Below are positions 22,419 to 61,960 of a DNA stretch of 64,000 nt, in pieces. This DNA is from Paramarasmius palmivorus (Eukaryota > Basidiomycota > Agaricomycetes > Agaricales > Marasmiaceae): NCBI GenBank assembly GCA_037176845.1, contig JAYKXP010000034.1, forward strand, positions 248,001 to 312,000, in the 5' to 3' direction. Every line of letters starts with the position of its first letter. Within the stretch, counting starts at the first letter, position 1. Made by a program: the position numbers and the translations under genes. The notes under the pieces were generated by a model. The model searched no databases, was not told the DNA's origin, and saw only the letters and a list, made by a program, of their open reading frames with translations.

Positions 22419-23108
22419 TCAAGAAATAAAAGACGAACGGCGTGTTATTGGCGCGGGCAAGCCAGCAGACGCTGGGTTGGAGAAGCCAACTAATCCATGA
22501 ATACGCCTGTGGAATTCCATACGGCAACGCAGTTGCTTGTCTGATTCGATGTTGAACTACAGAAAGGATCAGAACCAAGATTTGACACATTTCTTTCCGA
22601 TGCTGACCTGGAGCTCCCTCTCAAGAACATCTGCCTCCTGGTACCAGGCAACGAACTCCGGGACTAGCTTCAAATGCAAACCAATGTATGTCTTCCACAA
22701 AGGCGACAACTCAGCATCCATACTGAGGCTCATGCTTCGGATTTGAGAGGCTTTGAAGTTCAGGCTGACATGTTGAAAGGCATCGGCGAACATAGTCTTC
22801 GAATCCAAAGGGCATACGTACCACATCCACCTGTGAGTAATATCCTCTAGAGCGGAGCCATGAAGCACCGCTGTCCGCAGCGCGTCATGGTAGATACCGC
22901 CTAGACGAGCCTCCTTTGCGTTAAGTTCTGACGATGATACGCATGGGAAACGAGAGCGGAGGCAAGGCCAAGCAACGACGGTAGCGATGGAGGTGATGCA
23001 TACGAGAAGACCGACGACAAGATAGCCCTTGGACTCGCAAGCACAAGAAGCACTGTCAACAAGTTGACTAGCACTTTCTTGTACTGGACCTTTGGGAAGG
23101 TTGAACAT
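22419..23108 (-). CDS. RYPC-motif membrane protein family, member 1
   Basis: First of twelve paralogs of a family I do not recognise. 190 aa in three exons: 23108-22831, 22764-22608 and 22556-22419. The start at 23108 is the second Met of the open frame and leaves a TATA-like CTTTTAAAGG at 23141-23150 upstream. N-terminal Ser/Cys-rich stretch, one membrane helix (about 29-47), then R-S-R-F-P-C (Cys56), E-L-N-A-K-E and L-H-G-S-A-L-E-D-I-T. Exon 2 (157 nt, phase 2 to 0) encodes A-S-Q-I-R-S...L-W-K-T-Y-I-G-L-H-L-K-L-V-P-E-F-V-A-W-Y then E-A-D-V-L-E-R. The tail is basic. It is the most isolated member, about 10 kb from the next. The short lumenal N-terminus and Arg-rich segment after the helix suggest N-out/C-in topology. 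No function assigned. Confidence 0.75.
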
Positions 23109-26100
23109 TTCTCGAGACAAACACAAATGTGTGAGGCAAGCCTTTTAAAGGCCCAAGGCGCTAGTTTTTTGAGGGATTGGCGTTCAAAAAAGACGAGCAC
23201 CTAGAGTCGCTGTTAAGGAACGCTGATCCGCATGCAAAATGATCTTCGGTATACTCCGAAGTCTCTGGTGGTAGAGCATACGATTACTTGACCTAGACAG
23301 AAAGCGCAAACCTCATAGGTCCACGTATCCGGGCGTCCATCCGGTGGCAGCTATAGCTTTCAAAAACGTCTTCATTTGTAGGGTTCCACCGATGTCATAA
23401 GAGGTCATGACCAGGGCGCAAGCCGTTCAAATAAATTAGCGAAATACTGGGTTGTGTCGAGTATTTAGAATCATACCTCAATTAGCGACCATCGCAATAA
23501 GCGCCCTGAACACATACCTAGACATGCGATGACCCTTGGGCGTCATAAAAGTTTGACAGAGATATTGAACGCGACGAAGACTATTTTCATTGATAGATCC
23601 CATGAATGCTCAGAACCTCTTTGTGAACCCGATCGTGGCGCATACCTCAAAAAGCGTGCCATAATCGTAGGACAAGGTGAGACACCGCCCATGTCGCCCG
23701 CAGCTCGGTCCCATGTGGTAGCTAACGCCGTGTAGGCGCTGAAATCCACGACAGTCATCCGGTGAAAATCGTGTTCGTTGGAAGCTCCACCTTTGGCGAT
23801 CAGCCATTGAACAACAGCAGTGCTTAGGTTCACCTACTTGTAAAAACCAATTGATAGTATAGTTTATCGCGTGGGCCCTTCGGCGGAGATACCAGTGCAT
23901 TGTATATGGAACACCGCGCGAAGTTCCCATGTTGCCCAGAACCACCGAAACATTCCACGTCCTTCGTAGATATGATGGTGTTCTGAATCTCAACCTTGAT
24001 GGTCGTCAGCAATTAGGCTGAGCCCGTGGGGTGCGGAAAGCGCTGAAACATGCGGTGACATTAGAATTCGAAGGCTTGACAAACAACATGGAGGGTATGA
24101 TACAGATGTGGCTGGTGCCTTCTAAACATATCGATCTGCGGGAAACGTGGAAGTATAAGCATGTTAGATACTCAGTATAGGCTGTATATGAAGACACGCA
24201 CACGACTACGACCACGACAAGGGCAGAGCACCGATAAGCTATTCTGACGCATTAGTAGCAAGCTAACTTCGATTCACATCTAGAAGGTCTACCTTTCGCC
24301 TCATGTTGATGTCGAGACACCCGAATATTCATCTATTTGGAATACCTTTTGGATAAAGTCGACGAATCGGAAGAAGTGGTGCCTGACTAGAGTCAGACCA
24401 ACAATGAAATGGTTAGAGGAACAGTATGGCACACTGGAATGACGCTAAAGGTGTCTAGAGAACTAGATACCTTGATTCAAATATCAGACTTCTGGTAGAT
24501 AGACTGAGGAGGGTTAGTCAACGCACCCAGGTGATTTTCATCACATCTCCCCGCAAGACTTTCCCCATTCAACTATTCGTCAGATACAAGAGCGTTGAGC
24601 GAATGGGTTCAACACCAGACATCGTAGTCGACGTTAGACCATCGCTTAAGGATCGGATGGTTTGCGGAATCTTTCGGCACGTCGCGTGACTGTGACACAG
24701 CCACAGTATCAAGGCTTATGAAGGGTGGCGTGGGGTGGCGGGAATCGGGTCATGTCTTGGCCCACTATGCAGAAGATTCGCCATTTCCCTCAAAAGATGA
24801 TATTATGCGCATGTATAATACTCACATATACGCCGAAGTAAGTGACACAGTAGATGCGTGGGAATTCAGCAACTCAGCGAGGATGAGATCTATCGTGTAG
24901 GTCGAATTTGAACGAACTGACCCTTCAGGGTGGGTTCCCAATGGGTTCCGATATGACAGGTATGGGAGGAATCTTAATATTTCTCATACATATCTTTCTC
25001 GACGTAATTCGAATAGACTAAGTCGTACAATGCGCTAGTCGCTTACTCCAAATTGAGAACTTTCACCTAGTGCCTTCCTACACGAGCTGTAGAAATTAAT
25101 TTTGACAGTCTCCGAGGAGGTAAGTTCAGACATTGGAGGTTGTGGCCTGTAGACACAGGTAGACACCTTGCATTGATGCGCCCTGATGCGCCAAGTAGCA
25201 CAGCCCATCTTGCCGCCGGGTCGCTAAGCGCGTGGTTACATCTCATCCATCCTTCCAAATATGGCAGGTGCTAGGAGAAGTTTTGATCTTGCTTCTTCGC
25301 CGGTGAATGCATATAGATACGGTCAATAAATCGAAGAAACAAAGGCCGAACGAGCGGAATTCATTATATCTTACCCAACGCCACCTCTTGTGCCCAAACC
25401 ACAGCATCAATCCTTCCGTAATAGTATTACAATAATGATAACGTCGAGCACAGAACCAGAGCGCAAGAATGGCAACCGGCTGATAATCAAGTCGACTGCG
25501 AATTATTTGAAGTGTCAGTAGGATTGAAATCTTCAGATAGAGGTGTATGAGCATCACTGCACTGCATCACACTGCGGCTCGCTAGTAGGAATAGTTACAC
25601 GTACCATTTGGTAGGTCACAAATTTTGGAGTAAGCTTTTGGATTCTCCGCTACCCCTCCGGGTCGCTAGTGAGCCATGTCGTGGTCCGGCTCCAAACAGT
25701 GATTGCATTATCTGACAGGGGCGCGGGATTGGGCAACGGAGATACGCATCCGTCCGCCACTTGAGGTTAAGATGGCGAAGGATATCCCGGAAACACGAGA
25801 GGTAACCACTTATAACAGCTCTTATTTTTACAGAAGCAGGAAGCTATCAACATTCGAGTCAGTAAACCTAACGCACAGCTCGTACTCTTCCTCAAAGCTG
25901 TTGGCTTTTGGGATCACTCGCCGCTTCCAAGGAGGATGCCGGATGTAATACTGATAATTGCAAAATCATAAAGGATTACCGTTAATGTGAGTGCGAAGAC
26001 GGTAGACTCGAATTATATTCACGTTGAGTCCTAGTTGCTCCTCGTAAATGCAGCAAGTCAATATCGGCGTAATTACAAAGACCTCGTTGGGATCATGTCC

Positions 26101-27916
26101 ATGATTGACCTCAGTACGTCTCCGCTGAAAGCTATACTAGTACAAATGAATTCCATCGAGCTTCTCCCGCAGGCCGCGTTAAGAGGAAATCCCAACAGCA
26201 TGTTGTGGCGTTGTGACACATAGCTGTATGTCTTCAGAAGCTTCCCGTCGTCTTCGGCCTTGTCGTAGCTGTTACGCTGCGCAGAAGATGAAGAAAGCGG
26301 TGATATCCACGTCCCAGATGGAGGTGATCGTTCCAATGCGGTACATAAGCTCGCGAAACATACAGCACGAGCTCGGGCGCTTGAATCCTAGTCCGTGCGA
26401 ATACTAGTGCCTTTCACGAAGAGCTATGGAATGACGATGTTGTGCAATGTTCTAGTACATACCATGAGGATAAAGCTACCGATAGAAGTCCTGGTCTTGG
26501 GTCACACCATTCGAGTCCGTCGCAAAGCTTAAAGTACTTCATTCGCATCTAGATGGCTTCTGTAGGATCCGAGTCGTTAATGCATCCGTGATCGCTGACA
26601 ATTCCCCAAATGTGCAGCAGAAGAGCAGTGGAATTGACTCTCGCGGACGAGGTCGTCTGTTCTTCGATATATATGAGGATGGACGCTACAGAACGTGTCT
26701 ATCAAACCATCCTGTGAAGAGGCAGTACTCCGAATAGTTGTACAGCAGGAGATCCCATCAAACAAGAATTGAATGCAGTACAGGACCTGATTGACATAAA
26801 CACGTTCCAAGATCTGTCTTCCTTTGAATAAAAGCTTGGAGTTCAGCCCAGAGCGCTCACCTGTTTCCGTGGTCACTTGCGAAGATTCAACCGCTTGTAA
26901 AATCTTAGCAAAATTACACCCGCCAACGATAGCAATGTCGTGCCTAGTAACTCGGATGAAGGAATGATTATTCGGATCTTCCCAAATAGAGGGCAGTACA
27001 GTCGTCCTCCTAGCGTCCTTGAGAAACCCAGCTTTGGGCTTTTAAACTCCTAGGCTCCAAGTATTTTTTAGTTGCCAGCGCATGATTGCGACCGAGTTCT
27101 CACCTCGATTCCGAAAGAAACATGTACTGTACACTAGCGTATGACATAGCGTCATAGGATCAATTCATATCATGCCACTTGTCCAGGTTATAAAGAATTA
27201 GGGTTGTTGGGACATGTCGGAGCAGAAAAAGGGTTCGTTGCTAGGCGCTGAAGACCGGAGTATATATAGGAGCCAGAAGGTGGCCGGAATTTGAGGTTGA
27301 GGGTGGTGCAAAGTACCTCGACGAGTCCGAATTGACACTATTGAAGAAAAGAGCTGCCAGCACAGAAGGATTGGCGAAAATGTGGAGCGGGACTAGGCAC
27401 CGGAGATAACATACCCATCAATATTGTTTTCTGACGCGTCGGCAGAAATGAGCGCGGCGTGTCAGGAACAGGAACTAAAGTGCCCAAGCTTGTAGAGTCT
27501 ACTGAGCTGAAATGAGCCACAGAGTACTGTATCGCTTGAGCTTCCAGGCGTCTAGGCGTACAGTAGCAGATGAAAGTAAAAGGGAAACCAGGAAAAAAAA
27601 GATCCAGAGCCGGAAGGATAGGACTTAAGGCGGTTGTCTGCTGACAAAGCCATGATCAGGGCCGGAATCTAGATTTCCCTCCGTGCGTTCCTATTCGACC
27701 GGTCCCTCGCAATTCCCTCATTGAGGGTGCTTCCTCTTCTTTCTCGTTGGCAGAGTCTATCTTTGCTTTTTCCCATTCCATTCTTTTAACTTGGCCTCTC
27801 GTTTCCTCACGGTCTTTACTCTTTCGACGAGTCTCCCATCAGCTCCTAGAGCTCTACGCTATACGGAACGATAAATATATACTCCCCACCGAGAATAAGA
27901 AGAGGAAGATATCAAG
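23109..27916. other. 4.8-kb gene-poor region
   Basis: No gene I can support. Minus frames at 23993-23543, 25557-25243 and 26876-26577 are open for 90-130 codons but give no domain and no consistent splice chain. Some stretches resemble disrupted exons. AT-rich parts and absence of genes suggest decayed repeats. Confidence 0.4.
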
Positions 27917-29379
27917 ATGTTCACACCGCCATCATCACCTTTTCCGCCACCAGGAGAGAAGGAGAGAGATCCCATGGACGAGGCAGGAGCAGCGCTGTTG
28001 TTCAAAGAACAATGCGGGGTCGAGGAAGAGCAGGCGGAGTTGGCACTAGAAGCAGTAGTGAAGAGGAAGCGGCGGATAGGGACCTTACGAACCCTTAGCG
28101 CGGTTTTTATTCCTCTCATTCTCATATTCGTCACTGCATCAACCGGGTGGATAACACACCCAGCAGCATTCGACGTTTTCTTGCCCCAACACCCTCAAAA
28201 CAGCACCTTTTTGGAGCTCCACGAACCTCACACGGATTCCGACTTTTACCTACTACATAGACGGGCAAACGATGGCTCTAGCTCTGGGTCGTCTTCGTCA
28301 TCGTCGTCACCGACGTCGACATTACCTGCAACGGCTCAGCCCATACCGACGGTGCCCTCGTCAACTTCGCCACCGACGTTACCTACCCCGTTCCCTCAAC
28401 CATGGGACTCTGACATTGGGACTAACTTTACCACCCAAGGTTGTTACGACTTTATGTCTAACATGACCACCACGCCGGCATTCCGGACTTGTAGAAGTTT
28501 TGGGGGCTTGGTCGGTTTAGGTGGAACATCATTCCAGAAGGTATGTTTTTACCCCGAGGAATGGTCTTTACCATGCATTGATTGACACCGAATGTTTTCA
28601 GGCACTCTCGTCTCTGGACTCACTCAATACCATCATTTGGGGTACATGCAACACCAGCACTTCAGAAGACGATTGTATCAACAACATGGGTTGGTTTGCC
28701 AACAACATCAACGCTGAAGGCGCTTGTGCGCAGGAGCTGCGAGATGGGAACATCAACGTCAAATTGATGCAGATTGGTGAGTATTCGAGCTTACTCGGAA
28801 GACTTTCCATTGCTGATGTCTTCATAGTGCTGCAATCATACCCATTGACGCGCAACTTGGGGTGTATGATTGATCCTACGACCAACACCTACTGTTACCT
28901 CAACGCGGTTAGAAACTCAAATCCTAGTGATCTGTACGCTTATCAAGTGATCTTTGGTGCGTTTCTCCTTTGGTTGGCAATGACCATCGCTCGGGTTGGT
29001 ACTGATGGCTTCTCTCCCTGTTTAGGCACCAAATTCCCAACCAACTCGCAAGCGACATGTTCTGGATGCTCACGTCAAGTACTCGGTGCATTAGCTGGTG
29101 CGATACAGAATGGTGCTGGGCCTGGTAAAGGTGCGTCGCTCATACTTGCCTGTCTTCCACGCAGCACGTTCTAACTTTCGATGCACAGCTCTCCTCGGCT
29201 CCGAATCCCTCACGACTCTTTCTGCTGCATATCCTTCAGCGGCAAACTCTGCCTTGAACACATGTGGGAAAGGCTTTGCTCAGGTTGTCGGGTCGAATTC
29301 AAGCGTGAAGCTAAGGGTTGGAAGTATCGGCTGGTTATGGACATTGACGCTTTTCGCGCTGGCTTGGGTATCATTATGA
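27917..29379 (+). CDS. Membrane-anchored Cys-rich protein (DUF7729-like)
   Basis: A 407-aa protein in five exons (27917-28540, 28602-28776, 28828-28956, 29026-29130, 29189-29379), all in phase. A cytosolic acidic N-terminus leads to a helix at about 58-76 (T-L-S-A-V-F-I-P-L-I-L-I-F-V), then a Ser/Thr/Pro-rich stalk. The conserved ectodomain follows: Q-G-C-Y-D-F-M-S-N-M-T-T-T-P-A-F-R-T-C, I-I-W-G-T-C-N, L-G-C-M-I-D-P-T-T-N-T-Y-C-Y and A-T-C-S-G-C. It ends in a hydrophobic segment that could be a GPI signal or second helix. The Cys pattern matches what I know as DUF7729, widespread in fungi and of unknown function. Three introns have phase 1 and all have short GT(G/A) donors. Confidence 0.85.
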
Positions 29380-30593: not shown

Positions 30594-31260
30594 CTCACCA
30601 CGCTGCCAGTGACGACGATCCAGCGACACGCATTCCTTGATTGCTTGGAGACCAATAGATGCCGCCACCATGGAAGAACTCTGACTTGTATCCAGAGTCT
30701 TTGGTTCCCGAGATCATCGCTGACACAGGCAAGCCGAACGTCTTTAAGCTTTTAGCGAGCTTTTAGTACTTCATTGCCCACCTCCGAGCTCGATCCATTA
30801 TCGACAACGTCCATTGCAGATTTATAGCCAATTTACAGGCTCATCACTATTCTTCATAATCACGGCAAGTAAAGCAGAGTGTGCGCCGTTTGAAGGTGTC
30901 TGTGAACAGTGCCCCTTTTCGTCTCCTTCCTCCTTCAAGCTTCAAGTCCTTCTCTGATTTCTACCTTTGGAGACCATTGCCAGCTCTTCGGGATGCCTAG
31001 GTTTTGGTTCTGCATGGGGCACACGATGATTGTGATACATGAAGCATACGTTCACTGTAAGTTCACATTTTGGTCTCGAGGAACTATGTGTGTGCTGAAA
31101 ATCTCTCAGTTGCATAACTCCTAGCTTCGCGGGGAAGACCATTACGGGCTCCCAGCTTGAAGTGTTCTTGCTTACCGTGAATATTCTGTGGAGTATGGGG
31201 CCCTATCAGGTTCTTAGCCGGCGAACTTCACCTTCAAGTTATCACAGCACCAATTCCCTC
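30594..31260 (+). repeat. Direct repeat copy 1 (about 0.67 kb)
   Basis: Matches 31391-32019 at high identity over most of its length, with several small indels. The best-conserved part is 30905-31250. It contains the relic at 30612. Confidence 0.85.
30612..30780 (+). pseudogene. Relic of the RYPC-motif family (exon 2)
   Basis: Read in plus orientation it matches the family second exon with frameshifts: a W-K-N-S-D segment, L-V-P-E-I-I-A, then (W)-H-R-Q-A-E-R-L after restoring one base. No intact exon 1 is found upstream. Its sequence parallels the relic at 31408, so both arose by duplication of an already broken copy. Confidence 0.6.
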
Positions 31261-31390
31261 GAATTCCACCCCTCGGCTCTTCAAGCTTCAAGCTTCAGTC
31301 TCGATTTCTTGTCGTTGAACATCCTCGAGACTCCGTGACAAGCAAGGTATCTGCGCGGGACGCGCGCTTTCGAGTTTAGAATCTCGGTCG

Positions 31391-32019
31391 TCTTCACCAC
31401 GCTAACGACGACCCAGCGATACGCATACCTTGACAGCTTGGACCAAGCCTCGACATGGATGCCAACATCATGGAAGAACTCTGACTTTCATTCAGAGTCG
31501 TTGGTTCCCGAGATCGTCGCTGGCACAGGCAAGCCGAATGTCTTCAGCGAGTTTCGTTGCCCACCTCCTAACTTGATCCATTATCGACGACGTCCGATAC
31601 AGATTCATAGTCAATCTACAGGCTTGTCTCCATTCTTCAGAATCACAGAAAATAAAGGGAAGGCATCCGTAAACAGTGTCCCTTTTCGTCTCCTTCCTCC
31701 TTCAAGCTTCGAGTCCTTCTCTGATTTCTGCCTTTGGAGACCATTGCCAGCTCTTTGGGATGCCTAGGTTTTAGTTCTGCATGGGGCACACGATGATTGT
31801 GATACATGAAGCATACGTTCACTGTAAGTTCACATTTTGGTCTCGAGGAACTGTGCTGAAAATCTCTCAGTTGCATAATTCCTAGCTTCGCGGAGAAGAC
31901 CATTACGGGCTCCCGGCTTGAAGTGTTCTTGCTTACCGTGAATATTCTGTGGAGCATGGGGCCCTATCAGGTTCTTAGCCGGTGAACTTCCCCTTCAAGT
32001 CATCACAGCACCAATTCCG
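31391..32019 (+). repeat. Direct repeat copy 2 (about 0.63 kb)
   Basis: Second copy of the block at 30594-31260, with a period of about 0.8 kb. Shared landmarks include GGTTCCCGAGATC, TTCAGGGATTCTT-free flanks around CTCCTTCCTCCTTCAAGCTT, and GCATGGGGCACACGATGATT. Between the copies lie about 130 bp of unrelated sequence. Confidence 0.85.
31408..31630 (+). pseudogene. Relic of the RYPC-motif family (exons 2-3)
   Basis: Degenerate exon 2: A-I-R-I, L-D-M-D-A, S-W-K-N-S-D-F-H-S-E, S-L-V-P-E-I-V-A, and after a one-base slip H-R-Q-A-E. It is followed at about 31596 by a match to the family third exon (compare ATTCATAGTCAA with member 3). Stops and frameshifts rule out a functional gene. Closest to members 2 and 3. 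Confidence 0.6.
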
Positions 32020-32470
32020 TCGTTACTTTTTTTCGAGCTTGCACCGTCCAAAATGTTCTCAATCATATCCGAATCTTATCAATGTCATTTGCTACCTGAG
32101 TGAGGCAAGCCTACATTAGCCTACACTCCGTGCTATACCCGCAACTTGAATGGGTAATCGTGATGCAATCCGTCTCGTGGTTCCTGACAGTGACCACGGC
32201 GCCGATGTCATTACATCCGCCTCCGCCTCACGCAGCTTTTCCACGCGACGGTGCTAGTTCAAGAGCTCGGACTCAAATCTCGAGATACCGTCGGTACGCA
32301 AACGGCTCGGACGGGTCAAACGGCTCGGATGACTTGGACGACTCGTACTCCTGGATAACGGGACACCCTCCTCGGTACGCCAACTTGTTTTTCTCAAGCA
32401 TCAAAGCTGACCGATCCGGACGACAGGTCGCTGCAAAATACATTTGTCTTTTAAGTGATACAGAGCTATG
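32020..32470. other. No gene seen
   Basis: Contains a short imperfect repeat of GGCTCGGA/CGGACGG units near 32300-32345. The 125-codon open frame here has low-complexity composition and no support. Confidence 0.45.
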
Positions 32471-33032: not shown

Positions 33033-33041
33033 CTATCTATC
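33022..33041. repeat. (ATCT)n microsatellite
   Basis: About five ATCT units. It partly overlaps the right end of the foldback element. Confidence 0.8.
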
Positions 33042-33120: not shown

Positions 33121-33840
33121 ATGTCTACCCACTCTCAGGATCTCACCAGAGACGATGCCAGCAGCTACTCCACCTATACAGTTGCCTTGATCGTGATGTC
33201 TGCCTTCGCTAGTGCATCCTGGCCCTACATTCGCTATCGCTATCCTTGCATCACCATCTCGGGGCTCAATGCAAAGGAAGAATCTTTCGATGTTACGTGG
33301 AGTAGGGCCCTTGCGAAGGAATGCCCTATTGCTTATACACTCGAGAGTAGACGAGCCAAGTGCGTGCATGAATTTCACCTTCGCGATCCAATCTCCGACG
33401 CTGATGCACCCACACGATAGCGTGAAGGCCGAAGCTTCTCTAATCCGTGTCAAAGGCCTCAACATGGATGAGTCGCCGTCATTGTCGAAAATCTATCTTG
33501 GCTTTTATCCATCACTGGTCTCGGAGATCGTCGCTTGGTATAAAGAAGCCGACGCGCTTGAACGAGAGTTGCTGGTAACGTCATCACTGCTGATCATACA
33601 TACCCAATTCATTGACATGTCATATTTCTACTTAGCTCGACATTGAGGCTCATATTCAAGGTCAGCTCCAGGCAGGTGCTGTGAACCTCACGCAAAGCTT
33701 ATCATCCTTTTCTTCATTCATCGCCCTGCCTCCACCGGCACAAACTGCGTCTCATGTAAATACCCATCACCACAACCAAGGTTTGCCATTCCTTTCTTCA
33801 TTCAAAGATAGTTTATTGATTTGTCGTAACAGGTTTCTAA
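33121..33840 (+). CDS. RYPC-motif membrane protein family, member 2
   Basis: 181 aa in four exons: 33121-33359, 33421-33574, 33636-33780 and 33833-33840. One membrane helix (about 18-36), R-Y-R-Y-P-C (Cys43), I-S-G-L-N-A-K-E. Exon 2 (154 nt) encodes A-E-A-S-L-I-R...L-N-M-D-E...Y-L-G-F-Y-P-S-L-V-S-E-I-V-A-W-Y and E-A-D-A-L-E-R-E-L-L. The third exon is Ser/Pro/His-rich and ends H-H-H-N-Q. The last exon is only 8 nt (Q-G-F-stop), the same as in member 3. If the last intron is not removed, the frame stays open to 34295, adding a long hydrophobic tail. The splice conserved with member 3 argues against that reading. Confidence 0.75.
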
Positions 33841-39776: not shown

Positions 39777-40501
39777 TTACAAGCCTATGGGCAACTTGTC
39801 AGTGGACCGTCTTTCCTGGGACAATAAATGACAAACCTTGGTTATGATGACGAGTATGAACATGAGATGGGGGGTATGTAGGTGGCGGAGGGGTGATAGA
39901 TGACAATGATGAGCTTTGCGCCGAGTTCCAAGGATTGGATTGGAGCTGACCTTGACTATGAAGTTCAATCTTGATCTAGAAACTTGTCAGTGAAATACAG
40001 AACGAAGAGTAATGATGATAACGTACTTGCAATTCTCGCTCGAGGGCATCAGCCTGCTTGTACCAAGCGACGATTTCGGGCACTAACGACGGATGTAAAC
40101 CAAGGTAAATCCTCCATAGCGACGGCGCGTCATCCATGTTGAGGGCTTTGATGCGGATCTCAGATGCCTCGGTCTTTAGGCTGTCGAGATAGGCGTATCA
40201 GCAAGGGAATCAACACAAGATCAAGGAATACGCGCTCTGTTCGTCTCTGTGTCATTGTCGCTAGAATGGATCCATTGAGGCAACCTTCAACGCTGGCATT
40301 GCTCCAGACCTCGTCGAGAGACTTTTCCTTTGCGGTGAGCTCAAGGATGGTCACGCAAGGGTAGCGTGAGCGAAGGTATGGCCAGGATGCACCAACGAGG
40401 GCGGACATAACAGTTAGGGCAACCACGTAGGTAGAGTAGCTGCCAGCATCGGGGTCATTGTTGGTGGTGAGTTGAGGAATCTGAAAGGAAGCAGGGGCCA
40501 T
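39777..40501 (-). CDS. RYPC-motif membrane protein family, member 3
   Basis: 188 aa, four exons: 40501-40236, 40180-40027, 39975-39837 and 39784-39777. The start at 40501 is chosen over 40543 because a TATA box (40547-40556) ends only 4 bp before the upstream ATG. One helix (about 24-41), R-S-R-Y-P-C (Cys49), E-L-T-A-K-E, M-T-Q-R-R-T. Exon 2: T-E-A-S-E-I-R...Y-L-G-L-H-P-S-L-V-P-E-I-V-A-W-Y, A-D-A-L-E-R-E-L-Q. The last exon is 8 nt, as in member 2. Intron 1 either uses a GC donor at the conserved phase-2 site or a shifted GT donor (40231) with a later acceptor. Nearest relative of member 2, in inverse orientation. Confidence 0.75.
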
Positions 40502-41940: not shown

Positions 41941-42698
41941 ATGGCCACCAACACTGGACCAGACGCAGCTCTCCAGCTTTCTAGCAGCACCCCCGATACC
42001 AGCAGCTACTTGACCTATTTCACTTTGGCTCCTGACATTGCCGGTGTCATATGGCGATACATCCGGTTTCAGTACCCCTGCATTACCATCTCAGAGCTGG
42101 AGACAAAAGAAAGATCTGTCGATGCTGTCTGGGAGAACGTCCTCAAATATTATCTGGGGTCATCCGGCACGTATGAGGACATGGCGCAGAGGCGAAGCGA
42201 GTTCGTGCACCTGAAGTTCCTGATTTTCTTTGAGCGCTAAGCTAATCCAATCGTAGCCTAAAAATGAATGGGTCAGAAATTCGGACTCGCAGTTTGGAGA
42301 TGGCGTCATCAGCCTGGAGTGTCTGTGTTGGTTTCCATCCTGCGATCATCTCTGACATTGTTGCGTGGCACAGAGAGGCAGATCAATTTGAACGAGAGCT
42401 ATTGGTGCGTCAGCTGAACAGTAATCAGAAATCAATACAAAATAATGATAATATTGCCAGTTGATCACAGAAGCCGGGGTTCGAGAGCGGCTCAGAGGGC
42501 AACAGAAGAGGGATGCTGCTAGCAGCTCCAACAGTCAACAGGACATGGCGCAGTCTGTTTCTCTGCCTCCGCCTGCTCTTACGCGCCAGAATCGTCGATA
42601 TACTGAAGGTTTGTGGCATTCAGATTACTACTCACAGGCGTCTTGTTGACTGTTGCGCCAATTCAGGATCTTTGTCTCCACATGTTCTGCCTTTGTAA
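41941..42698 (+). CDS. RYPC-motif membrane protein family, member 4
   Basis: 195 aa, four exons: 41941-42200, 42257-42404, 42461-42608 and 42667-42698. Ser/Thr-rich N-terminus, one helix (about 24-39), R-F-Q-Y-P-C (Cys47), I-S-E-L-E-T-K-E, D-M-A-Q-R-R-S. Exon 2 (148 nt): N-G-S-E-I-R...S-A-W...V-G-F-H-P-A-I-I-S-D-I-V-A-W-H then E-A-D-Q-F-E-R-E-L-L. Exon 3 is Gln/Arg-rich and exon 4 ends G-S-L-S-P-H-V-L-P-L. The final 32-nt exon is supported because its peptide is conserved in member 7 while the intron between them is not. It is the duplicate of member 7, about 7.6 kb away in the same orientation. Confidence 0.8.
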
Positions 42699-45021: not shown

Positions 45022-45723
45022 ATGGCCAGCGAATCCACTTCCTGCCTCTCAACGGCTATCTCCGAAACCTTCGACCACAAGTCTATAACCATTCTGGTAT
45101 TTCTCACCCTCGTTCTTCTTGGACTCATCTCCCGCTACCTTCTCCTGCGTTTTCCTTGCTTTACCCTCGCCAGTCTTAACGGTGCAGAGACACACCTCGA
45201 AGAGGTTTTTGATGACGCCGTTAAGAACGACTCGCTTTATGGCGCCGATCTAGAGAATTTTACCCTGTCAAAACTCAGGTAAGTCAGCCAGTCTTATCAG
45301 ATGGAGCCAGACTTCAAACTCACCATACAAATTCAGGCTTAAGAAAAGAGCATCCGAGTTGCGCTCTCGAGGACTTCAGATCCGTCACCGATTTTGGAAT
45401 ATCAATCTGGGACTTCATCTGGAGTTAGTCCTGGATATCGTTGAGTGGTACGCCGAGGTAGAGGTCCTGCAAAGAGATATCCAGGTACTTACCTTTAAAC
45501 CTTTCGTGTGGCGGACTGTTCACTGACGTCCAACCTCCAATAGGCCCTCGTCGAGCATGATAACCAGCATCGATGCGATGCCGAGCTCCACAGGCGGGAG
45601 AACACAGCTTCTCGAACGCCACCTTCAGCCACGACGATCGCGACTCCTGGCGCCTCGCCGCCGTTGGCTACGTCCGCCATTTTACGTACCCAGAGTATGT
45701 CGTGTCTATGCCGTTCGACTTGA
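45022..45723 (+). CDS. RYPC-motif membrane protein family, member 5
   Basis: 194 aa in three exons (45022-45278, 45337-45484, 45544-45723). One strongly hydrophobic helix (about 21-37: S-I-T-I-L-V-F-L-T-L-V-L-L-G-L-I), then L-L-R-F-P-C (Cys46), L-A-S-L-N-G-A-E, L-E-E-V-F-D-D-A and L-Y-G-A-D-L-E-N-F. Exon 2 (148 nt, phase 2 to 0): K-R-A-S-E-L-R...F-W-N-I-N-L-G-L-H-L-E-L-V-L-D-I-V-E-W-Y, L-Q-R-D-I-Q. The third exon starts A-L-V-E-H-D-N-Q-H-R and becomes Pro/Ser/Thr-rich. A diverged member without a close duplicate in the window. The last exon could splice again near 45711. Confidence 0.72.
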
Positions 45724-46394
45724 AGTGTTACTGAGCTTTGTATCCTTCGTAGCTCGGCATCGATTTCGACGACCGGGTGCTTTGATATCCACGTCGTTCA
45801 TGGTAGAAGGTTGAGCTTTGTGGGACCCTTTCAATCCATGTATTGTTACGCGAACTTGATTCCGATTCTTCTTCATGCTTTCTTGCTTTGCGCAATGCCT
45901 TCTATTGTTCCCGACCGTTGATATCCTGTAAACATATGAATCGGTCAATTGATACTCTTAACAGGCTACGATATATTGGTGACGGACCAATCTTGGGAAT
46001 CATATATCATATCCGCGGAAAAGGTTGAATGAGAAAGGGAACGAGCATGTTCGTTCTTGACCACATTCCTTGGCCATTAAAGCTACTCTGCGTCTTCATA
46101 ACACCCTCGATTCATCTGATACATTGTGGAAAATGTGTGGTGCGTACGCCTGCAACCGGGAGATATAAATCGATGAGATTGGAATGAAATCAAAGCTGGT
46201 ACAGGTATGTTACAACCATTGACGGTACAACACGAAAGCAAAACAGTTCCATAGATAGCGAAAACGACGTGAAAGTAGCCGGACAGAGAAAGCATTGTCC
46301 AGGAGAATGTTGGATAGGATCGAGGAACGGGGACAGCGTGATGAAGGAACTGATAATCAGACCAACGAAGCGAGTGCATCTGTGATATCTGTTT
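45724..46394. other. Convergent intergenic between members 5 and 6
   Basis: Tail-to-tail pair. The minus open frame running through 46567-46190 is read-through of the member 6 last exon in another frame. No gene. Confidence 0.55.
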
Positions 46395-47093
46395 TCATGC
46401 ATTAGAGGAGGCATCCGAACGGTGATAGGTGGACACACCTTGCGAGACATCATCATGACTAGTCGCGGACTGGGAATGATCATTCGCGTTCGTAGTGGTG
46501 GTATCCGTTGTCGACGTGTTTCCAAGCTGTCCAGCGTTGCGTTGAGCCCGCATTCTAACGCTAACATTAGCCTATAGGTTGTACGTTTAGTGAGTAAGCT
46601 GGTCAGTCAATAAGTGTGAATATACCTGGATATCCCGCCGAAGCTTCTCCGCATCATTATACCAGCCGACGATGTCCCTCACTAGCTCGACTTCGATCCC
46701 GAGGCATGTCTTCAAGAGGATGGAGAAAGGAAGAGCGCTGATTTCCAGCGCTCTTATGTCCAAGCTAACGCGGCTCACATCAGCACCAGAGGAAGGGGAA
46801 AAAAAGATCTGAGCCGCTCACCCAAGCTTTTTGAACTCGATTTCCTCCTGCTCCTGTTCATCGAGATAGCCATTCTGTATCGAAGCTCTGATGGAGTTTC
46901 CCAATGCCTCCTTGACGTCTTGTAGCTCAGAGAGGCTAATGCATGGGTAGCGAAGTCGAAGGTAGCGGTAAAGAGCGAAGGCCAGGGCAATCCCCAAAGC
47001 GATGACGATATAGCCGGCGTGGCCCGGTATTACGGTGATGACCGACGCCGGGAAGCCAGGGGTTTGCTCTGGTTGGGTGTAGGAAGAGTACAT
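46395..47093 (-). CDS. RYPC-motif membrane protein family, member 6
   Basis: 195 aa in three exons: 47093-46822, 46764-46626 and 46571-46395. The start at 47093 gives M-Y-S-S-Y-T, like members 9-11; an upstream in-frame Met at 47144 would add 17 aa. One helix (about 28-42: Y-I-V-I-A-L-G-I-A-L-A-F-A-L-Y), L-R-L-R-Y-P-C (Cys51), L-S-E-L-Q-D-V-K-E. Exon 2 is the shortest of the family (139 nt): D-I-R-A-L-E-I...C-L-G-I-E-V-E-L-V-R-D-I-V-G-W-Y, A-E-K-L-R-R-D-I-Q. Tail Thr/Asn/Ser/Asp-rich and hydrophilic. TATA-like elements lie at 47158-47178. Confidence 0.72.
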
Positions 47094-49384: not shown

Positions 49385-49496
49385 AGCGGCAGAAATATAG
49401 GAGATGTTGACGACTCTTTCCAAATGGGGATGGTGGATTGACTTCCAACGTCCCCATTTGGAAAGAGTCGTCAACATCTCCTAGATTTCTGCCGCT
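49385..49496. repeat. Near-perfect inverted repeat (46-bp arms, 20-bp spacer)
   Basis: Arm 49385-49430 is the reverse complement of 49451-49496 with one mismatch; the central 31 bp are perfect. The right arm is the part also present upstream of member 4, so the left arm was added by an inverted duplication. It ends 55 bp before the ATG of member 7 and could form a strong hairpin in DNA or in the 5' UTR. Confidence 0.95.
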
Positions 49497-49550
49497 GACT
49501 AAAAGAGGTCCAGCGAAAGGTACTGTTAGATCAAACTCCCTCTTTCTTCA

Positions 49551-50332
49551 ATGGCCGCCAACACTGTACCAGACGCAGCTCTCCAACTTTCCAGCAGCAC
49601 CACACCCGATATCAGCAGCTACTTGACCTATATCATCACCTTGGCTCCTGACATCGCCAGTGTCATATGGCGATACATCCGCTTTCAGTACCCCTGCATT
49701 ACCATTGCAGAGTTGGAAATAAAAGAAGGTTTTGTTGATGCTCTCAGGGATAATGTCCTCAGGAAAGGTTACCTCAGGCCATCCGATGACAACTTCGAGG
49801 ACATGGCGCAAAGGCGAAGCGAGTTCGTGCACTTGAAGTTCCTGATTTTCCTTGGGCACTATGCTAATTCAACCATCGTCATGATAGTCTCAAAATGAAT
49901 GCGTCAGAGATTCGGACTCGGAGTTTGGAGACGGCGTCGTCAGCCTGGAGTTATATTGGTTTCCATCCTGCAATCGTCTCTGACATCGTTGCATGGAACA
50001 GAGAGGCAGATCAATATGAACGAGAGTTATTGGTGCGTTAGCTGAACGTTGATCATACATCAATGGATAATAGTATCTTGCTAGTTAATCACGGAGGCCA
50101 GGGCTCGAGAGCGGCTCAGAAGGCAACAGAACAGGAACCTTGTCACTAGTTTTGACGGTCAACAGACTCGGAACGTGGTACAGACTGTTTCCCCGCCTCC
50201 GCTTGCCCTTACACGCCAGAATCGTCGCTATACTGAAGGTTTGTGGCACCCATGTTAGTCGCTCATAGTAGGCGCCTTGCTAACCGCTGTACCAACCCAG
50301 GCTCTTCGTCTCTGCATTCTCTGCCCTTGTAA
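49551..50332 (+). CDS. RYPC-motif membrane protein family, member 7
   Basis: 200 aa, four exons: 49551-49822, 49888-50032, 50085-50238 and 50301-50332. Nearly the same protein as member 4: one helix (about 26-41), R-F-Q-Y-P-C (Cys49), I-A-E-L-E-I-K-E, and D-M-A-Q-R-R-S at the exon end. Exon 2: N-A-S-E-I-R...S-A-W-S-Y-I-G-F-H-P-A-I-V-S-D-I-V-A-W-N, E-A-D-Q-Y-E-R-E-L-L. The tail ends G-S-S-S-L-H-S-L-P-L. Both copies keep every splice site and the full frame despite indels of whole codons, which suggests both are or were recently under coding constraint. Confidence 0.8.
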
Positions 50333-53284: not shown

Positions 53285-53892
53285 TCACTGCACTGGACGG
53301 TTCCCAATGAGCTCAAGACCGTGCACAGGAGATTCTGTCTCGAGACGGTGCTGTATACCTGCCTCGACGAGAAGCTATTGTACAAATATCAGTGTGCTGA
53401 AAGTACACGACGAAGGAGATACTGACGAGGATATTGCGTTCCAATTCCTCTGCATCCGAGTACCAACTAATGATATCTGGCACTAGAGACGGATGAAAGC
53501 CCAGGTAATTCTTCCAGAACGAACGTGCAAGGAGGTTGTCCAGTCGGATCTGGGATGCTTTCTTCTTAATACTTGAGAAGGATTGGTAAGTTCATTATCC
53601 CAGACTCGGAGTAAAGCCAAACTAACTCGATCCGTCGACGCGTTATATCTTCCAGCTCGCGAGCGAAGCGTAATAAAAGCGCGATGGTCAACATGCCATG
53701 AGCGTCGTCGAGACACCTTTCCTTTTCATTGAGCTCCGTCAATGTCAGGCATGGATAGCGGAGTCGGAAGGATAGCCAAAGGATAGATGTAGTGAGAAAG
53801 GAAACAGCGGCAACGCTGTAGATGATGGTGCTTGTAAGTGGTGAGTCTGTAGTAAGATTTTCAAGGGAGATCTGGGGGGGTCTGATGTACAT
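53285..53892 (-). CDS. RYPC-motif membrane protein family, member 8
   Basis: 166 aa, the shortest member, in three exons: 53892-53627, 53571-53427 and 53374-53285. One helix (about 22-40), F-R-L-R-Y-P-C (Cys48), L-T-E-L-N-E-K-E-R-C-L-D-D-A, and R-E-L-E-D-I-T-R-R-R at the exon end. Exon 2 (145 nt): K-K-K-A-S-Q-I-R...F-W-K-N-Y-L-G-F-H-P-S-L-V-P-D-I-I-S-W-Y, A-E-E-L-E-R-N-I-L. Its sequence is close to the family consensus. Third exon short: L-L-V-E-A-G-I-Q-H-R then a hydrophilic tail. A TATA-like CATATAAAGG (minus strand, 53937-53946) lies about 45 bp upstream. Confidence 0.78.
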
Positions 53893-55069: not shown

Positions 55070-55871
55070 TCAAACTTCGAGCGTAGCATTAGTGCTTGGA
55101 TCGGATGCTGGACCGCCTGGTCTGCGGTTTCGGTGCCTCGGTGGCCCTGAAATACTCAGAGGTATCGAGAGACACAAGATGTAGATACACACCTCGGGAC
55201 AGTGCTACTTCAAGTCCAGATAGTGCTGGCCGACCATCGTCGTTTCTACGCGTCGATGTGGATACTGATGCCATGCGCTGACGCCTCTGAAGTTCGGCAA
55301 TATATCGTGATCGTTTATCGTCTTCGATGAGAATCTGAAAGGTTGAAGAAAGGTTGAACATGTTAGCGAGTTGGACGTCCCATGATTTTGACTCTCGCAC
55401 TAATATGCCCCTCTGGAGTTTGTCGGTTTCCTTGTACCAAGTAACAATACTCGGGATTAACTCGACCTTAACGATCAACCATGCCTTCCAGGTTGAAGAT
55501 GGATCATGAAAGCTTTGAGAGCGAATATCCGAGGCCTTCTCATTTAATCTAATCATCGAACAAATATCAGTGCGAGCATAGTAACAAACAAGAGCTACAT
55601 ACTTGAGTTTTTGTAGAATAATATCCTCAAATTCTCTACCGTTTAGACAAGCAATTCGTTTCGCTTCATCGAAGGTGTCGTTCAGCCCCTTCTCGAACTC
55701 ATTCAGGGAATGGATAGTAAGGCAAGGGTAGAGCAAGCGAAGGTAGTGGTAAAGAGCAAAGGTAAGGGTGATCAAAGCGACAATGACGACAACTTTCCGG
55801 TCAGGTACTTCCGCGGCGGCGAGCGTCTCGGAGATTGCCGCGAGACCAACTGTTGTGCGTTTGGTGTACAT
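55070..55871 (-). CDS. RYPC-motif membrane protein family, member 9
   Basis: 211 aa in four exons: 55871-55603, 55548-55401, 55334-55193 and 55146-55070. Introns 1 and 2 (54 and 66 nt) happen to be open, so the unspliced frame reads through them; paralogs show where they are. The M-Y-T-K-R-T start matches members 10 and 11. One helix (about 27-41: K-V-V-V-I-V-A-L-I-T-L-T-F-A-L), L-R-L-L-Y-P-C (Cys50), I-H-S-L-N-E-F-E. Exon 2 (148 nt): K-A-S-D-I-R-S-Q-S-F...W-K-A-W-L-I-V-K-V-E-L-I-P-S-I-V-T-W-Y, T-D-K-L-Q-R-G-I-L. Exon 3: I-E-D-D-K-R-S-R-Y-I-A-E-L-Q-R-R-Q-R-M-A-S. Exon 4: G-P-P-R-H-R-N-R-R-P-G. Confidence 0.8.
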
Positions 55872-57028: not shown

Positions 57029-57831
57029 TCAACTTTCAGCGGTAGTGCCAGGACTTGGAAGTGCATCGGGCATTGAAACACCTGGTCTACGGTTTCGGTG
57101 TCTCGGAGGTCCTGCAGCACTGCGCTCAGAAAAGTAGAGAAGAACAAAGTCCAGCTACACACCTCGCAGTACCACTTCGTGACGAGACGATGTTGCCGGC
57201 TGACTGTCGTCGTTATTACGCGTTATTGTAGACCTTGCTGTCATGCGTAGGCGCCTTTGAAGCTCAGCGATATATCGTGACCTTTTATTGTCTTCAATGA
57301 TAATCTGGCGGTTTGAAAATGTCGATGAGCAACAGAATGAAGCGGAAGCTCTGATAACGCACCAATATATCCCTCCGGAGTCTGTCGGCATCTCTATACC
57401 AAGCAACAATGCTGGGAATCAGCTCGACTTTGATCATGAGCCAAGCTTTCCAAGTCGAGGAAGGGTCTTGAAGACTTTGAGCACGGATGTCTGAGGCACT
57501 GTCGTTCAGTCTGCGATGTAAACATCAGTTCTGATAGGGCCTCAAATGAAATTACTGCGCACCGAAGCTTTGACTGGGTGATGTCTTCTAACTCGTTTCC
57601 GTGCAAACCAGTATCCCCTCTGGCCTCAGTGTAGGTATCTTCCAAAGATTTTTCGGTGCCATCGAGTGCAGAGATAGTGAGGCAGGGGTAGAGCAACCGA
57701 AGGTAGTAGTAAAGGGCAAAGGCAAGGGCAATGATGACGAGTCGGAGTACGTATCTGCGGTCAGGTGCCTGAGCAGCCGTCTCGGAGATTGCCGTACCAA
57801 CCACCTGGCTTGGTTTGAGCGTGGTGTACAT
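57029..57831 (-). CDS. RYPC-motif membrane protein family, member 10
   Basis: 213 aa in four exons: 57831-57563, 57510-57363, 57304-57163 and 57111-57029. Exons 1-3 have exactly the same lengths (269, 148, 142 nt) as in member 9. One helix (about 28-43), L-R-L-L-Y-P-C (Cys50), I-S-A-L-D-G-T-E-K-S-L-E-D, G-N-E-L-E-D-I-T. Exon 2: S-A-S-D-I-R-A-Q-S-L-Q-D-P-S-S-T-W-K-A-W, V-E-L-I-P-S-I-V-A-W-Y, A-D-R-L-R-R-D-I-L. Exon 3: I-E-D-N-K-R-S-R-Y-I-A-E-L-Q-R-R. Tail G-P-P-R-H-R-N-R-R-P-G. An open frame continues upstream of the ATG, but a TATA-like element at 57915-57924 supports this start. Confidence 0.82.
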
Positions 57832-59493: not shown

Positions 59494-60300
59494 TCAACCT
59501 TCGGTGGTAGTACTAGGACTTGGAAGTGCGTCGGACACCGAAACATCTGGTCGGCGGGTTCGGTGTCTCGGAGGTCCTGCAGCACTGGGTTCAGAGAAGC
59601 AGAATAGAATGATGTCGAGCTACACACCTCGCGGGGCCACTGCTTCGTGACCAGACGATGTCACAGGCTGAACATCGTCGTTAGTACGCGTTGTTGTAGA
59701 CCTTGATGCCATGCGTTGACGCCTTTGAAGCTCAGCGATGTATCCTGATCTTTTATTGTTTTCGATGATGATCTGGCAATATAAAGGCATCGGTGAGGAA
59801 CAGAATGACCGAAGAGCTCTGATAACGCACCAATATATCCCTACGAAGTCTGTCGGCATCTTCGTACCAAGCAACGATGCTGGGAATCAGCTCAACTTTG
59901 ATGATGAGCCAAGCTTTCCAAGTCGAGGAAGGATCTTGAAGACTTTGAGCACGGATCTCTGAGGCACTGTCGTTCGATCTGCGATATAAACATTAGCGCT
60001 AATAGGACCGAAAATAAAAGCAAGTATTGCGCACCGAAGCTTTGACTGGGTGGTATTTTCTAGTTCGTCTCCTTGCAAACAAGCACTCCTTCTGGCTTCA
60101 GTGTAGGCATCTTCCAAAGATTTTTCGGTGTTGTCGAGCGCGGAGATGGTGAGGCAGGGATAGAGCAAGCGAAGGTAGTGGTAAAGAGCAAAGAGAAGGA
60201 CGACCGAGGCGATGACGACGACCACTTTCCAGTCAGGTGCTTCTGTCACCGTCTCGGAGATTGCCGCAACGTTTGGCACGGCTTTTATGCTGCTGTACAT
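59494..60300 (-). CDS. RYPC-motif membrane protein family, member 11
   Basis: 213 aa in four exons: 60300-60035, 59978-59831, 59772-59628 and 59576-59494. Closest to member 10: second and last exons have identical lengths (148 and 83 nt). One helix (about 25-40: K-V-V-V-V-I-A-S-V-V-L-L-F-A-L-Y), L-R-L-L-Y-P-C (Cys49), I-S-A-L-D-N-T-E-K-S-L-E-D. Exon 2: S-A-S-E-I-R-A-Q-S-L-Q-D-P-S-S-T-W-K-A-W, L-I-P-S-I-V-A-W-Y, A-D-R-L-R-R-D-I-L. Exon 3: I-E-N-N-K-R-S-G-Y-I-A-E-L-Q-R-R-Q-R-M-A-S. Tail G-P-P-R-H-R-T-R-R-P-D. Members 9, 10 and 11 form a tandem subcluster on one strand. Confidence 0.82.
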
Positions 60301-61179
60301 CGGAGGGAATGCAAAAGCTAGGGCTAAAGGAAATGGTTGGCTAATGCACGTCGGGATATTATCGAACAAGAAAACGAAAGACGCATTCTTATACACTTGT
60401 CCAGTTGTGTTCAAGTTGGACCCAATGACTTGGACTCCAGAAATTTGATAGCACTGAACGTGGAATACGGGTCTTCTTGATCTTCTTCTTGATGTGTTCC
60501 ATAATAAGTATATTCTCCTATCTATCTATCTAGTATCTATCTATCACATACTTATTACGGTAAGTTTTCCTGGATATCGTAACTTACAGTATTTACCCCC
60601 CTTCTATCCCCCTTTGGAAAAGCCCCTCAGCTCTTGACTGTCTCTCGAGTCTTTTCCAAAAGCTCGGCGTCTCTATAAATCGCAGCTAGCCGTCAACGCG
60701 TCAACTGTGATACTATTCGAGGCCACGCAAATTCACGGTCGCTCTGGGTAAGCAGTCCCAGAGGTGCTTAAATAAGCGCTAGAGCCTGGTTTCCAGTCCC
60801 TAGATCGGACCAACATATTCCTCGGTTACTGGTTGAGAACGTTGAGATCCCACTACACACAGCCTGAAGGGTTGGCGTAAGCGACCACGGATGGCAATAC
60901 CACCGCCCCTCCAAAAAAAAACATATTCCTCGGTACCTCCCTCATTACATAGTCTCCCCTCCCCTCCCTCATTGAACTCGAAAAACGTCGCAACTCGACA
61001 GCTTTCCTTTTGGCTTACTTGGAAGCTGGGGATCACTGGACCTTTTGACATGATGACACATGTGCATGAGGCACTGTCAATTGAGTTTTACAGCAACCCT
61101 AGTTTGGCCTAAGTAATTTGGTAACTCGGACCTCTTTGAGCGTCGACTTTTTCCCCTTTTCTCTCCACAACATCCTCTC
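60301..61179. other. Divergent promoter region of members 11 and 12
   Basis: TATA-like TATAAGAA (minus) at 60386-60395 for member 11. A T/C-rich tract lies before the ATG of member 12. ACATATTCCTCGGT occurs twice (60811 and 60920). No gene. Confidence 0.55.
60518..60545. repeat. (CTAT)n microsatellite
   Basis: Imperfect CTAT repeats interrupted by TAGTAT. Same motif as at 33022 (and, reversed, 41413), all near family members. Confidence 0.8.
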
Positions 61180-61960
61180 ATGTTCGCCTCAAACACCAGT
61201 CAAACACTGTGGTCTGCTGCTGAAGGCTCCATCTTCCAGACTACAAATTACACGTTCTATGGTCTCTGCGCTCTCATCATTCTCACCGTACCCGCTGCCT
61301 TTTGGTCTTATCTGCGATCCCAATATCCATGTCTCACTCTCGCGGAACTGAACAAAAAAGAGAATCATCTTGACGACGTCTTCAACCGTGCACCCAAAGT
61401 CATCATCCGCCCATATGGAATTCAACTCGAAAACAAGAAATTGGAATTGATCGAGTACGTGTAGTGTTTTTGATTCCTTGCTGATAGTTACTGATTAACC
61501 GATATACGTGCAGGTTGAAACTCTGGGCTTCTCAAATCCGCACGAAGGGACTGCAGCTGGAAGCTACATCTCTGGTGATATGGAAAGCGTGCTTTGGCGT
61601 CCACCCAAAGCTGATATTCGATATCATCTCCTGGTACCACGATTCCGAGGCATTAGAGAGAGATATTCTCGTGCGTATTCCTCTGAATCACTTTGACCGT
61701 CCTATCTCATGCTCTCTATATGACAGTCTATCACTGAATCCATCACACGGTACTGTTACGAGTATGAAGCCGAAGTGAAAAACATCGTTGATTCTAAGGA
61801 GTCAATGATGGGCGGTCCGCCTTTTCGTGGTCGCTCTGCCTCTGGTTATGGTGTTTGCGACACACCCGGTACGTCTACCTTCGTTGCAAACGTTGGTCGA
61901 GGCGCTCGAGTGGCAGCTCGTCACCGTGACAGAAGGCCTTCTCCGACAGGATCTGTCTAG
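61180..61960 (+). CDS. RYPC-motif membrane protein family, member 12
   Basis: 221 aa in three exons (61180-61454, 61514-61670, 61727-61960). One helix (about 26-42: Y-G-L-C-A-L-I-I-L-T-V-P-A-A-F-W), L-R-S-Q-Y-P-C (Cys51), L-A-E-L-N-K-K-E-N-H-L-D-D-V-F. Exon 2 is 157 nt, as in member 1: L-W-A-S-Q-I-R-T...I-W-K-A-C-F-G-V-H-P-K-L-I-F-D-I-I-S-W-Y, E-A-L-E-R-D-I-L. Third exon S-I-T-E-S-I-T-R-Y-C-Y-E-Y-E, then a Gly/Ser/Arg-rich tail. A GTACGTC donor near 61869 may mark one more intron, which would change the last 30 residues. Last member before the siderophore transporter gene. Confidence 0.75.

What the first reader, a model, noticed from the sequence alone, without database searches (positions are those of the whole stretch)
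22419..61960. Clustered expansion of an unrecognised one-helix membrane protein family (12 members plus relics)
Twelve genes in about 40 kb encode 166-221 aa proteins with the same plan: short N-terminus, one membrane helix, an invariant Y/F-P-C within three residues of Arg just after the helix (Cys43-56), an L-N-x-K-E-like patch, then I-R...W...G-x-H-P-x-L-V-x-D-I-V-A-W-Y-x-E-A-D-x-L-E-R, and a fast-changing tail. I know no named family with this signature. Members occur on both strands, alone and in tandem, with dead copies between them. This is the behaviour of a birth-and-death cluster, as seen for allorecognition or host/competitor-interaction genes. That role is inference only.
Basis: partly seen in the sequence, partly recalled or inferred. 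Interest (0 to 1): 0.88.

Follow-up and report, generated by a model that had tools for sequence, protein, structure and literature searches.

The report
Orphan mushroom membrane-protein family, twice clustered
A plant-associated mushroom carries dozens of copies of a small, unnamed membrane protein in two tight gene clusters; the copies look like real genes kept under selection, they are wrongly labelled as a ribosomal protein in public records, and what they do is still unknown.

Summary
Twelve genes lie at the stated coordinates; each has one membrane helix, an invariant [YF]-P-C, a W-bearing block in exon 2 and introns of 51-66 nt at the same two places. The genome is Paramarasmius palmivorus (Marasmiaceae). 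A second cluster of about 22 loci lies on another contig, with a collinear second haplotype for 12 of them, and a few copies lie elsewhere. No Pfam model or PDB sequence matches; the only relative found outside the species is in Moniliophthora roreri. Public records name the proteins '40S ribosomal protein S6', which no profile supports. Coding constraint is clear: dN/dS is 0.21-0.31 after the membrane helix and 0.88-1.15 in the N-terminal tip, so the tip, not the tail, is the least constrained part. Two predictions agree on a membrane helix followed by a three-helix bundle, with no specific fold match. Charge bias puts the bundle and the invariant cysteine in the cytosol, pointing to S-acylation rather than a disulphide. 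'Dead copies' in the window come to two weak fragments; clearer relics lie in the second cluster. Allorecognition is neither shown nor excluded.

The parts
22419..23108 (-). g1, 193 aa; exons 23108-22822, 22764-22608, 22556-22419
   Evidence: spliced model; P0005 in the public database is this gene with intron 1 kept and another 3' end
30662..30774 (+). weak relic fragment of an exon 2
   Evidence: nhmmer E 0.0019; 30655-30744 is 88% identical to 31455-31544
31461..31551 (+). relic fragment of an exon 2 with a broken frame
   Evidence: nhmmer E 3.8e-7; blastn to g3 E 7e-5
33121..33840 (+). g2, 181 aa; exons 33121-33359, 33421-33574, 33636-33780, 33833-33840 (last exon tentative)
39777..40501 (-). 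g3, 188 aa; exons 40501-40236, 40180-40027, 39975-39837, 39784-39777 (last exon tentative); intron 1 has a GC donor
41941..42649 (+). g4, 198 aa; exons 41941-42200, 42257-42404, 42461-42649
45022..45814 (+). g5, 205 aa; exons 45022-45278, 45337-45484, 45544-45694, 45753-45814
46395..47093 (-). g6, 195 aa; exons 47093-46822, 46764-46626, 46571-46395
49551..50258 (+). g7, 196 aa; exons 49551-49822, 49888-50032, 50085-50258
53285..53892 (-). g8, 166 aa; exons 53892-53627, 53571-53427, 53374-53285
55070..55871 (-). g9, 211 aa; exons 55871-55603, 55548-55401, 55334-55193, 55146-55070
   Evidence: P0002 is this gene with intron 2 kept
57029..57831 (-). g10, 213 aa; exons 57831-57563, 57510-57363, 57304-57163, 57111-57029
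59494..60300 (-). g11, 213 aa; exons 60300-60035, 59978-59831, 59772-59628, 59576-59494
   Evidence: identical to public protein P0001
61180..61960 (+). g12, 223 aa (221 with the donor after 61454); exons 61180-61460, 61514-61670, 61727-61960
   Evidence: P0004 in the public database is the 221 aa form

Best explanation
Shown: a family of small proteins in P. palmivorus, with a relative in M. roreri, that grew by tandem duplication and decays by breakage, with a conserved gene plan, one hydrophobic segment near the N-terminus and purifying selection on the part after it. Predicted: N-terminus outside (or in the lumen), one membrane helix, then in the cytosol a juxtamembrane basic-Y-P-C and an antiparallel three-helix bundle whose last helix is long enough to pair with another subunit. 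Inferred mechanism: the protein is a membrane-anchored scaffold. The invariant cysteine, the only one shared by all copies, lies at the cytosolic end of the helix and is S-acylated to fix the helix or sort it to a membrane domain; the bundle binds like bundles (same or sister subfamily) or a shared cytosolic partner; the short outer tip is weakly constrained and so can label or sense differently in each copy. A repertoire of such proteins could mark hyphal membranes or tune contact responses. The last step is a guess.
For: Gene plan recurs in 12 of 12 window genes and in the second cluster. A hydrophobic segment with mean hydropathy of at least 1.3 lies before Y-P-C in 29 of 31 models (g4 and C1_1201 are lower); the 15 residues after it are more positive than the 15 before it in 28 of 31, equal in C1_1189, less in g10 and C1_1203. 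By the positive-inside rule (PMC5525207, start of abstract in the listing) this puts the body in the cytosol. [YF]PC in 31 of 31 models; g10 has no other cysteine. Two predictions from 13-row alignments, P0001 (pLDDT 76, pTM 0.54) and P0004 (72.5, 0.53), give the same order of helices. dN/dS: core 0.31, tail 0.30 and N-terminal tip 1.15 over six allelic pairs; 0.23, 0.21 and 0.88 over five recent paralogue pairs (tip against core, Fisher p 0.056 and 0.002). Precedent for S-acylation of a cysteine at the cytosolic end of an N-terminal helix: DGK-epsilon (PMC10759177, passages).
Against: No expression, localisation or acylation data. Both fold models come from 13 sequences and pTM is about 0.5. 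The tip counts are small (146 and 108 codons); among alleles the tip's high ratio comes from low dS (0.047 against 0.151 in the core), while dN is about the same (0.054 and 0.047); only among paralogues is dN clearly higher (0.218 against 0.120). Topology rests on charge alone, and g10, whose flank charges point the other way, is a clear member. Some models have a second moderately hydrophobic stretch (g6 1.56, g12 1.39, g4 1.31). Oligomerisation was not modelled.
Confidence: 0.4

Rival explanations
1. Self/non-self (allorecognition) or competitor-recognition genes: different strains carry different copies and alleles, and mismatch triggers a response.
For: Two clusters with local duplicates and relics; two haplotypes of the C1 cluster differ by 1.9-26% (median 6.0%, mismatches only) in 13 of 28 one-kb windows, against 1.3% mismatches in 2.5 kb of aligned flank and 0.5% in one other retained haplotig pair; weakly constrained tip.
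Against: Overall purifying selection (pooled allelic dN/dS 0.42), and coding sequence differs less between haplotypes than the rest (2.6% against 4.3%); the other 15 of 28 windows differ by 0-0.2%, perhaps shared assembly; only haplotigs different enough to escape collapse are kept, and four sampled stretches (C1:571 kb, C26, C11 and window 4-10 kb) showed none, so the comparison is biased; STE3 matches lie on C22, C100 and C64 and no HET match lies on C34.
Confidence: 0.15
2. Membrane-targeted cell-death executioners that work like HeLo, MLKL or plant CC domains: an N-terminal membrane helix followed by a helical bundle.
Confidence: 0.07
3. A lineage-specific family with a housekeeping-like or stress role at an internal membrane (for example a trafficking adaptor), amplified by chance in repeat-rich regions, with no recognition role.
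For: Purifying selection on core and tail; R-H-R-x-R-R-P endings that could act as a basic or R-x-R sorting signal (this reading of the motif is recalled); repeats and a retroelement fragment around the copies.
Against: Copy number (about 37 loci) and turnover are unusual for a housekeeping role.
Confidence: 0.3

Closest known systems
Uncharacterised Moniliophthora roreri protein A0A0W0GF98 (P0003)
   Same: 46% identity over 60% of g10, E 1.4e-33; two R-x-x-Y-P-C units in one predicted protein of 282 aa; its second unit falls among the P. palmivorus subfamilies in the tree
   Different: Probably two neighbouring genes fused by annotation (inference); no function known
Proteins named '40S ribosomal protein S6' of Paramarasmius palmivorus (P0001, P0002, P0004-P0013)
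   Same: These are the family itself, from the window's contig (538,214 b), the second cluster's contig (1,363,816 b) and the haplotig (47,377 b)
   Different: No ribosomal S6e profile match: the name is not supported
UstYa (PF11807), fungal one-helix proteins of about 200 aa (description recalled)
   Same: One N-terminal membrane helix, similar size
   Different: No UstYa match in the window or the C1 cluster (36 matches elsewhere); no invariant histidine
HeLo/HELL, MLKL four-helix and plant CC cell-death domains
   Same: Membrane-active helix plus helical bundle
   Different: No profile match; structural similarity within the range of any helical bundle
DGK-epsilon N-terminal helix with palmitoylated cysteine (PMC10759177)
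   Same: Cysteine at the cytosolic end of an N-terminal membrane helix, with a proline nearby
   Different: An enzyme; no homology claimed; analogy only

Membership tests
UstYa (PF11807) | Match to the Pfam profile over its cut-off | tested here: not met
   36 exon matches in the genome, none on C34 and none in C1:1186-1240 kb; no match
UstYa (PF11807) | Conserved histidine-cysteine motifs (recalled) | tested here: not met
   invariant columns are M, P, C, L, W, R; no histidine
Ribosomal protein eS6 | Match to the S6e profile | tested here: not met
   Searches (12 proteins, E up to 1; 5 proteins, two of them the same genes, E up to 0.1): no such match
HeLo/HELL or MLKL-like death domains | Pfam profile match | tested here: not met
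HeLo/HELL or MLKL-like death domains | Shared fold | tested here: inconclusive
   only generic helical-bundle scores
HeLo/HELL or MLKL-like death domains | Membrane permeabilisation and cell death | not testable with these tools
   Needs expression
Fungal allorecognition genes (functional class) | Allelic mismatch causes incompatibility | not testable with these tools
   Needs crosses or confrontations
Fungal allorecognition genes (functional class) | Strong allelic diversity or excess of amino-acid change | tested here: inconclusive
   high divergence in part of one cluster; dN/dS below 1 except in the N-terminal tip; two haplotypes only
Birth-and-death multigene family (pattern) | Tandem duplicates of differing age together with relics | tested here: met
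   Pairs with dS 0.23-0.62 beside pairs beyond saturation; tree with local sister pairs; relics

The most novel reading that the evidence does not exclude
The two clusters form a basidiomycete self/non-self repertoire built on an undescribed protein type: membrane-anchored helical bundles whose A and B subfamilies, often placed tail to tail, pair across the two nuclei of a dikaryon, so that some pairs are compatible and others set off a membrane or death response.
Probability: 0.07. Interest if true: 0.88.

Novelty: new member of a known kind. Interest (0 to 1): 0.5.

Why it matters
A family of about 37 loci in one genome with no domain model and a wrong database label is invisible to annotation; a profile from these models would expose it in other Marasmiaceae, which include cacao and palm pathogens. 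The two-cluster, two-haplotype layout makes it a good test case for how fungi grow and prune membrane-protein repertoires, and gives named candidates to anyone looking for recognition genes in mushrooms.

Tried and rejected

Row choices: the regional dN/dS used 6 of the 12 collinear allelic pairs; 5 are identical in coding sequence and one (C1_1205/C246_7) is degraded and left out. The 5 paralogue pairs are those of the 14 with dS under 0.7. Several B-type models in C1 and C246 read on through intron 3 (C1_1192, C1_1196, C1_1201 and partners); one search repeats with them cut before it, which moved the tail from 0.34 to 0.30 and from 0.22 to 0.21. The tree (30 rows) left out C1_1205, C11_913, C55, the unmodelled loci, all haplotig copies and the first unit of P0003. 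Strand counts of A and B include relics that I assigned by eye.
Full report
What is there. The window is G000:C34:248001-312000, a contig of 538,214 bases. A public protein from a contig of the same length, Paramarasmius palmivorus P0001, is identical to my model g11, so the organism is P. palmivorus, a Marasmiaceae mushroom. M. palmivorus is named among the thread-blight agents of cacao in PMC8581569 (start of abstract in the listing); that it is the same species under an older name is recalled. I re-derived all 12 genes by splice enumeration and hand checks, and added a fourth exon to g5, g9, g10 and g11 after seeing the public models. The coordinates, cysteine positions and size range of the finding are right; 5 genes are on the plus strand, 7 on the minus.

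Gene plan. Exon 1 codes for a short N-terminus, the membrane helix, a basic stretch with [YF]-P-C and a first amphipathic stretch; exon 2 for the A-S-x-I-R ... W-Y ... L-E-R block; exon 3 for the rest, in some copies with a further exon carrying R-H-R-x-R-R-P (4 window genes; found downstream of exon 3 in 6 of 6 modelled B genes of C1). Introns 1 and 2 are 51-66 nt and sit at the same two places in 12 of 12; third introns, where present, are 46-58 nt. One intron (g3, first) is usable only with a GC donor, so g3 is either a GC-AG gene or newly damaged. The conservation is well beyond chance: profiles of exons 1 and 2 built from the window alone find the second cluster with E-values down to 3e-21, for a nominal 2000 sequences.

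The second cluster. Searching the genome with family proteins shows a second cluster at C1:1186-1240 kb: 21 exon-1 loci plus one exon-2-only locus in about 53 kb. Seventeen were modelled, one of them degraded. C11 (911-914 kb) has two copies, one truncated; C55 has one; C81 and C67 have a weak exon-1 match each. That makes about 37 loci, 29 of them with a near-complete model (12 + 16 + 1). Contig C246 (47 kb) carries 12 of the C1 copies in the same order and relative orientation. In C1 two subfamilies are plain: A (short, typically ending E-L-G-R-R-x-M-x-A-T-x-V) and B (R-H-R-x-R-R-P exon). The tree separates A (10 C1 copies + one of C11), B (6), g9-g11, and a group of g1-g4, g7, g8 and g12; g5, g6 and M. 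roreri are loosely placed, so the split into subfamilies may predate the genus, but deep forks are weak. A loci are mostly on the minus strand and B on the plus (12:2 against 2:6, Fisher p 0.008; relics assigned by eye, copies not independent), which gives four tail-to-tail B/A neighbours (1192/1194, 1196/1198, 1203/1205 and 1209/1210 kb).

Selection. Of 14 paralogue pairs tried, 3 are saturated and 11 have dN/dS 0.11-0.42. Of 11 allelic pairs, 5 are identical and 6 have 0.32-0.78. Split by region: core 0.31 (alleles) and 0.23 (paralogues), tail 0.30 and 0.21, membrane helix 0.60 and 0.40, N-terminal tip 1.15 and 0.88 (tip against core: p 0.056 and 0.002). In alleles the tip's ratio is high because dS is low there (0.047 against 0.151) and dN is about equal (0.054 and 0.047); in paralogues dN is higher (0.218 against 0.120). 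So the genes are coding and constrained; the tail has the lowest dN of all parts in these close comparisons, though it aligns poorly between old copies.

Allelic divergence. Of 28 one-kb windows of C1 against C246, 15 differ by 0-0.2% and 13 by 1.9-26% (median 6.0%; the alignment is doubtful around 1191-1193 kb). Coding parts differ less than the rest (2.6% against 4.3%). The adjacent flank has 33 mismatches in 2,478 aligned columns and then stops aligning. One other retained haplotig pair differs by 0.5%. Four sampled stretches and the middle of the window show no haplotig. Assemblers keep haplotigs where haplotypes differ, so this is suggestive of old alleles but biased.

Structure and topology. 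AlphaFold2 with 13 rows for g11 (P0001) and for g12 (P0004, the longest branch of the tree) gives the same order: membrane helix, break at Y-P-C, helix of 17-20 residues, helix of 26-34, short helix, helix of 49, unstructured tail. No solved fold stands out. The flank after the membrane helix is more positive than the flank before it in 28 of 31 models, so the bundle is most likely cytosolic. The invariant cysteine is then at the cytosolic membrane face, where S-acylation is a common fate of a lone conserved cysteine; DGK-epsilon is a worked example (PMC10759177, passages).

Names. All 12 public P. palmivorus members found are called '40S ribosomal protein S6'. No profile supports it, and the label may have hidden the family.

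What it most likely does. I commit to a membrane-anchored, probably S-acylated, helical-bundle scaffold displayed as a repertoire. Coding constraint and a membrane helix are well supported; cytosolic placement is likely; acylation and oligomerisation are inferred; a recognition role is one of several readings. The surroundings (two F-box frames, a DUF7729 gene, a reverse-transcriptase/RNase H fragment below cut-off, a squalene/phytoene synthase, a tRNA) do not point to a pathway.

Verdict. Interest 0.5: not surprising in kind, but a clean, testable orphan family with a misleading database name.

Noticed in passing
P0001, P0002, P0004-P0013: All 12 public P. palmivorus members found are labelled '40S ribosomal protein S6' without any S6e profile match; at least three of the models (P0002, P0005, P0010) keep an intron as coding, by comparison.
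   Followed up: yes
G000:C1:1186000-1240000 (L012-L073): Second, larger cluster with subfamilies A and B mostly on opposite strands, giving four tail-to-tail B/A neighbours.
   Followed up: partly
G000:C1:1229366-1231929 (L022, L069): A B-type gene whose first and second exon lie about 2.2 kb apart, apparently through an insertion in intron 1.
   Followed up: partly
G000:C1:1223083-1223310 (L018): A-type copy without a usable ATG in frame, possibly a young pseudogene.
   Followed up: no
G000:C246 against C1:1185-1212 kb: Haplotypes alternate between near-identical blocks and blocks differing by several percent; beyond C1:1182.8 kb the flanks stop aligning.
   Followed up: partly
window 39777-40501 (g3): First intron is usable only with a GC donor (GCGCGT), otherwise standard.
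   Followed up: no
window 48951-49243: 293 bases 99% identical to C15:106851-107143: a recently moved or copied repeat.
   Followed up: no
window 49377-49504: Inverted repeat, 61-nt arms, 92% complementary, 6-nt gap, just upstream of g7.
   Followed up: no
window 30655-32022: Tandem duplication with spacing of 761-800 bases (88-95% identical pieces), carrying the two relic fragments.
   Followed up: partly
window 40704-40841: Two 69-base tandem units 99% identical, upstream of g3.
   Followed up: no
window 36175-36903 (-): Fragment with weak zf-RVT and RNase H matches, both just below cut-off: perhaps a retroelement remnant.
   Followed up: no
window 27899-28582 (+): Open frame with the start of a DUF7729 domain (E 9.6e-9), seemingly continuing in the next frame.
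   Followed up: no
L076 (G000:C1:1177300-1185301): Three open frames share the string SLVGWD/SLYGWD...TPL next to the second cluster: perhaps another small tandem membrane family.
   Followed up: no
G000, 36 places: UstYa-family exons on 15 contigs, several close together (C5, C11, C103, C205), none in either cluster.
   Followed up: no
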